64,000 bases of DNA from Candidatus Tanganyikabacteria bacterium (GTDB lineage Bacteria > Cyanobacteriota > Sericytochromatia > S15B-MN24 > VGJW01), in the NCBI GenBank assembly GCA_016867265.1, contig VGJW01000016.1, positions 1 through 64,000 of the forward strand, read 5' to 3'. Below are positions 1 through 9,944 of the stretch, one piece after another. The notes under the pieces were generated by a model, which ran no database searches, had not been told where the DNA came from, and was given only the letters and a program-made list of their open reading frames with translations. Each line of letters opens with the position of its first letter. Position 1 is the stretch's first letter. The position numbers and the translations under genes were made by a program.

Positions 1-429
1 TTGGCTGTGGTCGGGCCAAGGTCATGTTTTTTCTGTGTTTGTTCTTGAAAGGCGGGTGTCTCCGGGGCGAATAAGGGGAGTGTGGGGCAGGCGCGGCGTG
101 TGTGACGCCCGGTGTCCGTAGGGTTCGGAAGGAGAACGACGATGGCAACGCTCGGTTCGATTCATTCGCAGGGTGTGGCGACGACGCTGGCGGTTTCGAG
201 TTCGGTGCAGGACATTCTTGCCGAGATCGAGGCGAAGGCAAAGCAGGTCGGCCAGAGGAACGCCGACGGCAAGGAGTACACCCCCCAGGAGTTCCAGGCC
301 TGGATCCTGTCGAAGCAGACGCAGCTGGACATGCTGTCGAAGCTTCTGAAGGCGGTCGAGGACGGCGTCCGGAAGATGCACCAGTAGCGCAAGCTTGCGC
401 GTCGGGGCCCCTGCCAGCTGGCGGGGGCC
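1..429 (+). repeat. Tandem repeat copy 1 (identical 429-bp block)
   Basis: Bases 1-429 are identical to 503-931, offset 502 bp. The block includes a leader of about 140 bp, the whole 81-codon gene and most of the hairpin after it. The copies first differ at 430 (t) against 932 (c), inside the hairpin. The block starts at the very first base of the window, so it may extend upstream, and the window or contig edge may be a break in a longer array. Confidence 0.97.
142..387 (+). CDS. Small helical protein, T3SS needle-like, copy 1
   Basis: 81-residue protein. The start at 142 is set by the Shine-Dalgarno GGAAGGAGAA at 127-136; an upstream in-frame start at 112 has no such site. The second half, from FQAW (about residue 50) to the C-terminus, aligns by eye without gaps to the C-terminal helix of needle subunits such as MxiH/PrgI, sharing Q, S, K, D and Q at matching positions. 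A proline-bearing turn (YTPQ) precedes that helix, and the length fits the 80-87-residue needle family. No signal peptide or membrane segment. Known: needle subunits are exported by type III secretion and polymerise. Inferred: this protein may do the same. No other injectisome gene is in the window, so a flagellar-export substrate or unrelated small protein is possible. Confidence 0.8.
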   Translation: MATLGSIHSQGVATTLAVSSSVQDILAEIEAKAKQVGQRNADGKEYTPQEFQAWILSKQTQLDMLSKLLKAVEDGVRKMHQ

Positions 430-440
430 TCGGGGTTTTG
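404..440 (+). terminator. Hairpin after needle-like gene copy 1
   Basis: Stem GGCCCCTGCC (406-415), loop AGCT, return stem GGCGGGGGCC (420-429), extendable to 404-431, then GGGGTTTTGG. It follows a second small palindrome, GCGCAAGCTTGCGC, at 387-400 which overlaps the stop codon. Probable Rho-independent terminator, although the U-tract is short. Confidence 0.6.
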
Positions 441-502
441 GGGGGGTGGTCCAGGCTGGTCCAGATTGTAACTTGATGTGAAGTTTGATGATGTCTTGAT
501 GG

Positions 503-931
503 TTGGCTGTGGTCGGGCCAAGGTCATGTTTTTTCTGTGTTTGTTCTTGAAAGGCGGGTGTCTCCGGGGCGAATAAGGGGAGTGTGGGGCAGGCGCGGCG
601 TGTGTGACGCCCGGTGTCCGTAGGGTTCGGAAGGAGAACGACGATGGCAACGCTCGGTTCGATTCATTCGCAGGGTGTGGCGACGACGCTGGCGGTTTCG
701 AGTTCGGTGCAGGACATTCTTGCCGAGATCGAGGCGAAGGCAAAGCAGGTCGGCCAGAGGAACGCCGACGGCAAGGAGTACACCCCCCAGGAGTTCCAGG
801 CCTGGATCCTGTCGAAGCAGACGCAGCTGGACATGCTGTCGAAGCTTCTGAAGGCGGTCGAGGACGGCGTCCGGAAGATGCACCAGTAGCGCAAGCTTGC
901 GCGTCGGGGCCCCTGCCAGCTGGCGGGGGCC
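503..931 (+). repeat. Tandem repeat copy 2 (identical 429-bp block)
   Basis: Second copy of the block at 1-429, with no mismatch seen. The 73 bp between the copies (430-502) is not duplicated within the window. It contains three TTGATG words (at about 473, 486 and 496) that could be promoter-related, though I could not assign a promoter. Identity across non-coding as well as coding sequence points to a recent duplication or gene conversion. Confidence 0.97.
644..889 (+). CDS. Small helical protein, T3SS needle-like, copy 2
   Basis: Encodes exactly the same 81 residues as 142-387, with the same codons and the same Shine-Dalgarno (629-638). Two identical genes, each with its own leader and terminator, suggest a dosage need, as expected for an abundant structural or secreted subunit; this is inference. 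The needle-like features are described at copy 1. It is convergent with the MscS gene, whose stop codon lies 63 bp downstream. Confidence 0.8.
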   Translation: MATLGSIHSQGVATTLAVSSSVQDILAEIEAKAKQVGQRNADGKEYTPQEFQAWILSKQTQLDMLSKLLKAVEDGVRKMHQ

Positions 932-942
932 CCGGGGTTTTT
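906..942. terminator. Hairpin between needle-like copy 2 and MscS gene
   Basis: Same hairpin as at 404-440, but the c at 932 makes the extended stem fully paired and the following T-run is five bases. It lies between convergent genes, so it may act in both directions, although only the plus strand has the T-tract. Confidence 0.6.
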
Positions 943-7248: not shown

Positions 7249-8610
7249 ATGGCCCTGATCAAGGGGAACAAGGTCAATCCCCGGGGAACGGTGGTTCTTC
7301 AGGGAGATCAGCTCCTGCCGGAGGAGGCCGGTGAGGAGGCTTCCGCGTCGGCTGTGGCGTCGCCGGTCGTGACACCGTCCCTGCCCCCCGTGCCGCCTCG
7401 CGAGCCTGAGGGGGTGTGGCCGCAGGGCCGCCTGTCCGAAGCGCCGCAGGCAGAAGCGGCGGTCGTGGCTGGGGAGGTCTTCGAATCGGGCTTGCCGACC
7501 CCTTCCGATGCCGATTGGGCTGATGGGGACGCCGTGGCGTCCGGACAAGCGACTGTCGCGGATGTCACGTCCCGCATCGAGGCGTGGGATGCCGGTCGGG
7601 ATGCCCTGAGGGACGCGCGGATTGCCCTTTCCGGGCAAGAGGAAGCCGATGCACACTCGGAAATCGATCCGGCGGGGTTGTTTCGCGAGCGCCATGCGGA
7701 ATTGTCCACGCATCTCGAAGGCGTTGTTGCCGCCCAGGCACTCGAGAGCGCTCTCGAAGCAGCGACGCCGGGGCTCGAGTCTCTCGTCGAGGCCGAGGTG
7801 CGTGCTGCCCACGCCAGGGCCCGGGACCTCACCCGGTGGCGTTCCATGGCCGAGGCCGAAGAACAGATCGCCGCGTTGCTCGAGAATTTCGAATGGTCCG
7901 AGGAGCACGCCAAGGCCTTGCTGGGAGAGCGTGAGCAGGTCCTGGCTGCCGCCCGGCTCGAGGCCGAACGCATCCTGATGCACGCGCGGGCGGAGGCCGA
8001 GTCACTCATCGTCGAGGCTCGGACGCACGCGATGCAGGACATGGCCACGCTTGAGTCCCAGCGTCAGGCGCTCTTTGACGAGAATCGCCAGCGTGCTTAT
8101 GCCGAAGGCTACACCGAAGGGCGGGCGCAGGCTGACGAGGAAGGCGCCCGGTTGCTGGAAGACGCGACCGACAGCCTGAACCGGGTTCGATTGGCCCTGC
8201 CACATGCCGTCCGGGAGAGCCAGGACCAGCTCGTTCAGATCGCGCTCGAGGTCGCCGAGCGCCTGGTCCACGCCGAGGTCGCCACGCGTCCCGAGATCGT
8301 GCTCGACACGCTCGATGCGGCGTTGGCCCGAGTGACGGACATGGAATCCGTCACCATCCGGGTTCATCCCGAGGACTTGCCCATGGTCCAGGACACGGAG
8401 GAGCAGATTCGCGACCTGTTGGCGCAGGTCAAGAAGCTTGAGTTCCAGAGCTCGGTCAAGATCGCCCGTGGTGGCGTGTTCATCGAGACGGGATCGGGCA
8501 CGGTCGACGCCACGATCAAGACCCAGATCTCGGTACTTTCGGAGGTCTTTCGTAATACGCAGGCCGAGCTGTCGGAAATTTCGGAGCCCGGTCCTGAGGC
8601 TGCCTCGTGA
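7249..8610 (+). CDS. fliH: Flagellar export ATPase regulator FliH
   Basis: 453 residues. The C-terminal third has the FliH/V-ATPase-E pattern: a coiled coil with AYAEGYTEGRAQADEEG (about 284-300), then ALEVAERLVHAEV and the ending GGVFIETGSGTVDATIKTQ (about 405-423). The first 200 residues are acidic, alanine/proline-rich and not seen in the usual 220-260-residue FliH. FliH dimers hold the FliI ATPase inactive and dock it at the export gate. The stop overlaps the fliI GTG start (GTGA), so the two are translationally coupled. The start at 7249 has only a weak GCGGGGT upstream. Confidence 0.88.
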   Translation: MALIKGNKVNPRGTVVLQGDQLLPEEAGEEASASAVASPVVTPSLPPVPPREPEGVWPQGRLSEAPQAEAAVVAGEVFESGLPTPSDADWADGDAVASGQATVADVTSRIEAWDAGRDALRDARIALSGQEEADAHSEIDPAGLFRERHAELSTHLEGVVAAQALESALEAATPGLESLVEAEVRAAHARARDLTRWRSMAEAEEQIAALLENFEWSEEHAKALLGEREQVLAAARLEAERILMHARAEAESLIVEARTHAMQDMATLESQRQALFDENRQRAYAEGYTEGRAQADEEGARLLEDATDSLNRVRLALPHAVRESQDQLVQIALEVAERLVHAEVATRPEIVLDTLDAALARVTDMESVTIRVHPEDLPMVQDTEEQIRDLLAQVKKLEFQSSVKIARGGVFIETGSGTVDATIKTQISVLSEVFRNTQAELSEISEPGPEAAS

Positions 8611-9944
8611 CCTTGCCTCTCGAGCCATTCGCGCTTGCACTACGGGATACCGAGCCCATCCGTGCCCGTGGCCAGGTCACGCAACTGGTGGGCTTGGTCA
8701 TCGAGGCCCTTCTGCAAGGCGTGCGCATGGGCGAGCTCTGCCTGATCTATGCACAGCACCGCAAGACCGTATTCCCGTGCGAGGTCGTCGGTTTCAAGCC
8801 CAGACGCGTCATGTTGATGCCCCTTTCGGAGGTCGAAGGCATCGGTGCCGGTTGCGAGGTGGTTGCGACCGGTCGGATGGTCAGTGTCAAGGTGGGCCCC
8901 AAGCTGCTGGGCCGGGTGCTCGATGGCCTGGGCAACCCCATCGATGGCAAGGGGCCCCTCATCTACGAGACGACCTATGCCCAGATGAACCAGCCACCGA
9001 ATTCGATGAGGCGCAAGCTGATTGACACGGTCCTGCCGACGGGCGTCCGGGTCATGGATGGCTTCCTGACGATGGGCGAGGGGCAACGTATTGGCATCTT
9101 CGCGGGGTCGGGCGTGGGTAAGAGCACCCTGCTGGGCCAGATAGCCCGTCAGACCGAGGCCGATCTGTCGGTGTTGTGCTTGGTGGGTGAACGCGGCCGC
9201 GAGGTCCGCGAGTTCCTCGAGTACTCGCTGGGCGAGGACGGCCTCGCGCGCTCGGTGGTCGTGGTGGCGACCTCGGACACTTCCAGCCTGATGCGCTTCA
9301 AGGCACCCTTGGTCGCGACGTCCATCGCCGAATACTTCCGGGACCAGGGCAACAAGGTCTTCATGATGATGGACTCGATGACGCGTTTCGCGATGGCGAT
9401 GCGCGAGATCGGGTTGGCGATTGGCGAGCCTCCGGCCCAGAAGGGCTACACGCCGTCCGTCTTCGCCTTGATTCCCAAGTTGCTCGAGCGGGCGGGGACC
9501 AGTGACAAGGGCTCGATTACCGCCATCTACACGGTTCTGGTCGATGGGGGCGACATGGATGAACCCATCGCCGACTGCGTCCGGGGTGTTCTGGACGGCC
9601 ATATCGTGATGCTGCGCAACATCGCGGCCCAGGGCATCTTCCCGGCCGTGGACGTCCTGCAGAGCGTCTCGCGACTGCTCGACGTGCTGGCGACCAAGGA
9701 GCACAAGGCCGCGCGGCAGGCGGTCTTCCAGATGATCGCCGACTTCAAGGAGGTGCAGGATCTCCTCAACGTCGGTGCCTATGTCCGCGGTTCCAACCCT
9801 GCTTACGACCGCGCCATCTCGATGTGGGACCAGATCAAGGGATTCCTGAAGCAGGATGTCCGCGACAACACGCCCTTCGAAGAGACGGTGCGCCAGATCC
9901 GGATGCTGGGTTCCAACACGTCCGCAGCGTCGATGTTCAACTAG
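8607..9944 (+). CDS. fliI: Flagellum-specific ATP synthase FliI
   Basis: 445 residues from a GTG start overlapping the fliH stop. P-loop AGSGVGKST at about 166-174, LVGERGREVREF (about 192-203), Walker B region KVFMMMDSMTRFAMA, and the family segment GSITAIYTVLVDGGDMDEPIAD. Length is typical (about 440). It is the hexameric ATPase energising flagellar type III export. The closely related injectisome ATPase SctN cannot be excluded by eye, but FliH beside it and the flagellar operon 14 kb away favour FliI. No clear terminator follows. Confidence 0.93.
   Translation: MTLPLEPFALALRDTEPIRARGQVTQLVGLVIEALLQGVRMGELCLIYAQHRKTVFPCEVVGFKPRRVMLMPLSEVEGIGAGCEVVATGRMVSVKVGPKLLGRVLDGLGNPIDGKGPLIYETTYAQMNQPPNSMRRKLIDTVLPTGVRVMDGFLTMGEGQRIGIFAGSGVGKSTLLGQIARQTEADLSVLCLVGERGREVREFLEYSLGEDGLARSVVVVATSDTSSLMRFKAPLVATSIAEYFRDQGNKVFMMMDSMTRFAMAMREIGLAIGEPPAQKGYTPSVFALIPKLLERAGTSDKGSITAIYTVLVDGGDMDEPIADCVRGVLDGHIVMLRNIAAQGIFPAVDVLQSVSRLLDVLATKEHKAARQAVFQMIADFKEVQDLLNVGAYVRGSNPAYDRAISMWDQIKGFLKQDVRDNTPFEETVRQIRMLGSNTSAASMFN

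What the first reader, a model, noticed from the sequence alone, without database searches (positions are those of the whole stretch)
142..889. Two identical tandem genes for a type III needle-like protein
The sequence shows two exact copies of an 81-codon gene. The last 31 residues align without gaps by eye to the C-terminal helix of needle subunits (MxiH/PrgI), sharing Q, S, K, D and Q at the same positions, with a Pro-containing turn before the helix and the family length. Known needles are single genes inside injectisome clusters. Tandem, self-contained copies with leaders and hairpins, outside such a cluster, would be new. It could be a needle-like export substrate of the flagellar system.
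Basis: partly seen in the sequence, partly recalled or inferred. Interest (0 to 1): 0.65.

Follow-up and report, generated by a model that had tools for sequence, protein, structure and literature searches.

The report
Orphan helical-hairpin gene in tandem copies
A real, strongly conserved small gene, present here as two identical tandem copies, makes a two-helix protein of the same size and shape as an injection-needle subunit, but no test ties it to needles; it is an uncharacterised family found only in one order of bacteria apparently related to cyanobacteria, where the same hairpin is also strung into large repeat proteins.

Summary
Two copies of an 81-codon gene (142-387 and 644-889) sit in a repeat that is exact for 429 bp, from ahead of the gene to the terminator hairpin. 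The window starts at a contig end inside the repeat, so copy number is at least two and unresolved. The gene is real: orthologues occur in all five genomes of its family and in one of a sister family. Selection on the protein is strong: two dispersed copies in that sister genome differ at 14 of 204 bases, all synonymous. But every sequence test for a needle failed (Pfam, NCBIfam, a profile against all PDB chains, PF09392 against the whole genome), and Foldseek gives only generic coiled-coil hairpins. The only family that scores is WXG100, weakly; those genomes lack the EccC/EssC-type ATPase. The genes examined at both FlhA loci are flagellar. A conserved promoter-like element precedes the orthologues and is absent from 22 flagellin genes. 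The same hairpin is repeated two to six times in large proteins of four genomes. Best reading: a lineage-specific, self-associating helical-hairpin building block, made in quantity, perhaps with the repeat protein as scaffold. Function remains inferred.

The parts
1..429 (+). repeat copy 1 (cut by the contig start; identical to 503-931)
46..74 (+). promoter-like stretch TGAAAG-N-GGCGAATAA, the diverged counterpart of the element TTAAR..CYTGCAAG-N16/17-GGGATAA ahead of the orthologues (tentative)
142..387 (+). copy 1 of the 81-aa helical-hairpin gene, stop included
387..433 (+). two hairpins after the stop of copy 1, the second of 14 pairs (402-433), terminator-like
503..931 (+). repeat copy 2 (exact match to 1-429)
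548..576 (+). promoter-like stretch of copy 2 (tentative)
644..889 (+). copy 2 of the 81-aa gene, stop included; identical protein
904..935 (+). terminator-like hairpin with T tract after copy 2
7249..8610 (+). FliH, flagellar export (neighbourhood, not part of the repeat)
   Evidence: PF02108 E 2e-20
8607..9944 (+). FliI, flagellar export ATPase (neighbourhood)

Best explanation
A lineage-specific small soluble protein that folds as a two-helix hairpin and is made in quantity from a self-contained cassette (own promoter-like element, gene, terminator) whose dose has been raised by duplication more than once. Most likely it is a building block that packs against copies of itself, and against the large protein of the same genomes that carries two to six copies of the same hairpin; the conserved C-terminal helix would be the packing surface and the repeat protein a scaffold, nucleator or length-setter. 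Shown: gene reality, constraint on the protein, cassette duplication, predicted hairpin fold, coexistence with a multi-hairpin protein in four genomes. Inferred: high expression, self-association, scaffold role. Unknown: cellular location, and whether it leaves the cell (no signal sequence was seen by eye, so export, if any, would need a leaderless route such as the flagellar one).
For: Orthologues in all 5 genomes of the family and in G005. Strong constraint: G005 copies dN 0, dS 0.44 with all 14 differences at third positions; G002/G004 dN 0.017, dS 0.28. Cassette duplication in two lineages: 429 bp exact tandem here; about 370 bp dispersed in G005. Conserved upstream element, one strict match per genome in G001-G005. 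Hairpin model with pLDDT 88 and pTM 0.68 without and with an alignment. The C-terminal 18 residues are the most conserved part (0.71-0.79). Same domain repeated in G000:C7 (about 120-aa period), G001:C20 (121), G004:C184 and G005:C61 (89). Codon usage leans to that of flagellins (exceeds 41 of 49, 25 of 27, 16 of 16 and 29 of 33 neighbouring ORFs); near-neutral to acidic pI 5.1-6.7, which argues against a nucleoid protein.
Against: No direct evidence of oligomerisation or of contact with the repeat protein. Two-helix hairpins are a very common shape. The repeat proteins lie on other contigs, not in an operon with the small gene. No repeat protein was found in G002 or G003 (G003 is 64% complete). 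The codon-usage signal is weak and rests on a short gene and a mechanically chosen background.
Confidence: 0.38

Rival explanations
1. A needle- or rod-like subunit (by descent or analogy) exported by the flagellar type III apparatus, building a short filament or acting as an early substrate.
For: Same length and two-helix plan as PrgI; conserved C-terminal helix; G005 member has a loop LKPDDDEF of needle-like look (by eye); the gene lies about 6.4 kb from FliH-FliI in the window, about 7 kb in G002 and 3.6 kb from FliI in G001; flagellin-like codon usage.
Against: No needle hit by any sequence route and none in the Foldseek lists. Both full-length FHIPEP proteins score highest as FlhA, in flagellar gene settings, and occur throughout the class including genomes without this gene. 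Upstream element not shared with flagellins. Multi-hairpin fusions are not a needle feature known to me.
Confidence: 0.14
2. A cytoplasmic adaptor or chaperone: the small hairpin pairs with a hairpin of the large repeat protein, or another coiled-coil partner, to regulate or stabilise it.
For: Coexistence with large proteins made of the same domain; near-neutral to acidic soluble composition, no cysteine in most members; Foldseek resemblance is to generic helical arms.
Against: Adaptors seldom need duplicated identical high-dose cassettes; no shared operon with the repeat protein.
Confidence: 0.25
3. A WXG100 (ESX-type) type VII substrate.
For: The only family match of any note: PF06013 at E 5e-4 and 6e-4, 20 bits against a cut-off of 27.3; a class-wide PF06013 scan rings only on these genes; EsxA:EsxB at rank 24 and 20 in Foldseek.
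Against: Below cut-off; no W-x-G motif in any member; no FtsK/SpoIIIE-type ATPase over the cut-off in five of six genomes, hence no EccC/EssC seen; T7SS is described with EccC/EssC plus EsxA as the common parts (PMC11217815, abstract).
Confidence: 0.04
4. The tandem arrangement is an assembly echo and the genome holds one copy (the gene itself would still be real).
For: The contig begins exactly at the repeat start, and the repeat is 100% identical over 429 bp.
Against: Unique 58 bp between the copies and different 3' flanks; an independent duplication of the same kind of cassette exists in G005.
Confidence: 0.12

Closest known systems
T3SS needle subunit family (PF09392; PrgI, MxiH, YscF)
   Same: About 80 aa, leaderless, two helices with a Pro-bearing loop, C-terminal helix most conserved
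   Different: No sequence match by Pfam, NCBIfam, PDB profile or genome search; longer loop (about 12 residues in the model against 4); no injectisome cluster nearby; duplicated gene; hairpin also repeated in large proteins
WXG100 / ESAT-6 (PF06013)
   Same: Weak profile match (20 bits), helical hairpin, small and leaderless
   Different: No WxG, below cut-off, no EccC/EssC-type ATPase in five of six genomes
Flagellar rod and hook-basal proteins (FliE, FlgB) and YjfB motility protein (PF14070)
   Same: Small helical proteins of flagellated bacteria; single sub-threshold hits (FlgB E 0.08, YjfB E 0.08)
   Different: Hits are at chance level; a true FliE is encoded separately in this genome (C5)

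Membership tests
T3SS needle (SctF, PF09392) | match to the family profile | tested here: not met
   PF09392 against the own genome at E<=10: none; hmmscan of window protein and relatives at E<=10: no needle model
T3SS needle (SctF, PF09392) | sequence relation to solved needles | tested here: not met
   phmmer of two members and two profiles against all PDB chains, E<=10: no needle
T3SS needle (SctF, PF09392) | about 80 aa, two helices joined by a short loop | tested here: met
   AlphaFold2 H4-35 / H48-80, pLDDT 88; the loop is longer than in PrgI
T3SS needle (SctF, PF09392) | specific structural match to needles | tested here: inconclusive
   Foldseek: no hit at E<=0.001; top 50 are generic coiled-coil hairpins without needles; hairpins are poorly discriminated and only 50 rows are shown
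T3SS needle (SctF, PF09392) | encoded with, or alongside, an injectisome (SctC, SctJ, SctV) | tested here: inconclusive
   Both full-length FHIPEP and the FliF score best as flagellar, and the genes around them are flagellar; SctC secretin not searched
T3SS needle (SctF, PF09392) | secreted and polymerises into a hollow helical filament | not testable with these tools
   needs experiment
WXG100 | profile match over the cut-off | tested here: not met
   20.4-20.7 bits against 27.3; no hit over the cut-off in 18 genomes
WXG100 | W-x-G in the turn | tested here: not met
   none of six members
WXG100 | EccC/EssC ATPase in the genome | tested here: not met
   PF01580 scan of six genomes: over cut-off only one hit, in G004

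The most novel reading that the evidence does not exclude
An undescribed leaderless helical-hairpin filament or coat system specific to one order, in which a high-dose monomer assembles on a large protein built from two to six fused copies of the same hairpin, possibly exported through the flagellar apparatus as an independent invention of a needle-like structure.
Probability: 0.1. Interest if true: 0.72.

Novelty: new variant of a known kind. Interest (0 to 1): 0.36.

Why it matters
If the hairpin does polymerise or is exported by flagella, it would be a needle-like structure outside any injectisome, relevant to how injectisomes arose from flagella. As it stands it defines a small, strongly constrained protein family without any library model, together with its multi-hairpin relatives, and gives clear candidates for expression and binding tests.

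Tried and rejected
Pfam, NCBIfam, PHROGs and PDB searches of the small protein, its orthologues and the large repeat proteins gave only chance-level or sub-threshold hits. Rfam on the upstream regions: nothing. Plasmids: no match; phages: four tape-measure hits at E 0.5, chance. Co-regulation with flagellin: tested with a weight matrix of the upstream element; one search read some loci on the wrong strand and was redone correctly (22 genes, best 7.5 bits against 30-34 for this family), so rejected. Second FlhA as a sign of an injectisome: rejected, since it scores as FlhA, sits with FlgF/FlgG, FlgI, FliE and FliF, and is class-wide. An EF-hand reading of the DGKEYTPQEF loop was considered and dropped because the spacing is off by one. 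The weak hits in small-genome members of the phylum (34 residues, E about 0.005, in ORFs of about 615 aa) disappear with the profile and were dropped. Looking for the upstream flank of copy 1 was not possible: contig end.

Full report
What is in the sequence. The window begins at base 1 of contig C16 of a 2.85-Mb genome in 41 contigs. Bases 1-429 and 503-931 are identical, each holding a ribosome-binding site, an 81-codon ORF (142-387, 644-889) and terminator-like hairpins. Because the contig ends inside the repeat, the copy number is at least two.

Is the gene real? Yes. A search of 98 related genomes found orthologues in all four other genomes of the same family, and the profile added two copies in G005 of a sister family. 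None was found in the rest of the class or in 386 genomes sampled across the phylum. The two G005 copies differ at 14 of 204 bases, all third positions (dN 0, dS 0.44); G002 against G004 gives dN 0.017 and dS 0.28. One relative is deposited as a Cyanobacteria MAG; the genome appears to be a flagellated, non-photosynthetic relative of cyanobacteria (inference).

Cassette. Upstream of the orthologues in G001-G005 lies a conserved element, TTAAR..CYTGCAAG, 16-17 bases, GGGATAA. The strict pattern occurs once in each of G001-G005, at this gene only; the second G005 copy carries it with a change, the G001:C3 paralogue does not show it, and the window copy is diverged. The element is not found ahead of 22 flagellin genes. 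Duplication of the whole cassette happened here in tandem and in G005 as dispersed copies (homology over about 370 bp). Codon usage in four genomes leans towards that of flagellins. Together these suggest a protein needed in quantity.

Fold. AlphaFold2 gives a two-helix hairpin (H4-35, H48-80), pLDDT 88, with one sequence or four. PrgI in the needle has helices 7-37 and 42-74 (PMC11351046). So the plan is like a needle subunit, apart from a longer loop. Foldseek against the PDB has no hit at E<=0.001 and lists generic coiled-coil hairpins, with EsxA:EsxB at rank 20-24 and no needle among the top 50.

Family tests. No needle model or needle chain is hit by the window protein, its relatives or their profiles. 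WXG100 is the only family that scores (E 5e-4, below cut-off), and in 18 genomes it rings only on these genes. But there is no WxG, and no EccC/EssC-type ATPase in five of six genomes.

Surroundings. The gene lies about 6.4 kb from fliH-fliI in the window, with an MscS channel, a zinc carboxypeptidase, MoxR and DUF58 genes between. In G002 the order mscS, MoxR, DUF58, FliH, FliI is kept, and in G001 the gene lies 3.6 kb from FliI beyond a clostripain-like and a DUF2225 gene (gene names in those loci by similarity of the printed starts to the window genes). This is conserved neighbourhood and not proof of a role. The genome has two full-length FHIPEP proteins; both score best as FlhA and both sit among flagellar genes, and paired FHIPEP genes are class-wide, so they do not follow the presence of this family.

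Multi-hairpin relatives. The same domain recurs in large proteins: G000:C7, five significant copies, period about 120 aa; G001:C20, six hits in three 121-aa units; G004:C184, two; G005:C61, four units of 89 aa with a further C-terminal domain. No library names them. None was found in G002 or G003.

Interpretation. The likeliest account is a self-associating helical-hairpin building block, with the repeat protein as a possible scaffold. The fold prediction, constraint, cassette duplication and repeat relatives are shown; self-association, abundance and location are inferred. A flagellum-exported needle-like subunit remains possible but has no specific support; a type VII substrate is nearly excluded.

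Noticed in passing
L039:12999-14930 (G000:C5): FliF whose C-terminus carries a FliG middle domain (PF14841 E 4e-13; TIGR00207 E 5e-7): an apparent natural FliF-FliG fusion.
   Followed up: partly
G000:C5:80004-82001 and G000:C15:51611-53575; class-wide: Two full-length FlhA-type proteins per genome, one beside FliR-FlhB and Mot genes, the other ending an FlgF/FlgG-FlgI-FlgB/C-FliE-FliF cluster; the second scores just below the FlhA cut-off.
   Followed up: partly
G007 and G008, many contigs: Numerous extra matches to the C-terminal part of FHIPEP alone inside other ORFs (up to 11 FHIPEP matches in one genome), as if the cytoplasmic domain of FlhA had been reused or duplicated.
   Followed up: no
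G000, G001, G002, G003, G005: No FtsK/SpoIIIE domain over the cut-off in five of six genomes, four of them at least 95% complete, although most control genomes ring; a possible absence or divergence of FtsK.
   Followed up: no
L171:5515-7896 (G005:C61): 794-aa protein with four 89-aa hairpin units and a C-terminal domain that by eye has a Cys...His (papain-like) look; no library match.
   Followed up: partly
L007:7410-8129 (G000:C7): 240-aa ORF 31 bp downstream of the multi-hairpin gene on the same strand, also with a by-eye Cys...His pattern; no library match.
   Followed up: partly
L098:6063-6350 (G005:C28): 96-aa ORF just upstream of one small hairpin gene with two copies of an L.P.DPEFD.K motif, possibly a diverged relative.
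   Followed up: partly
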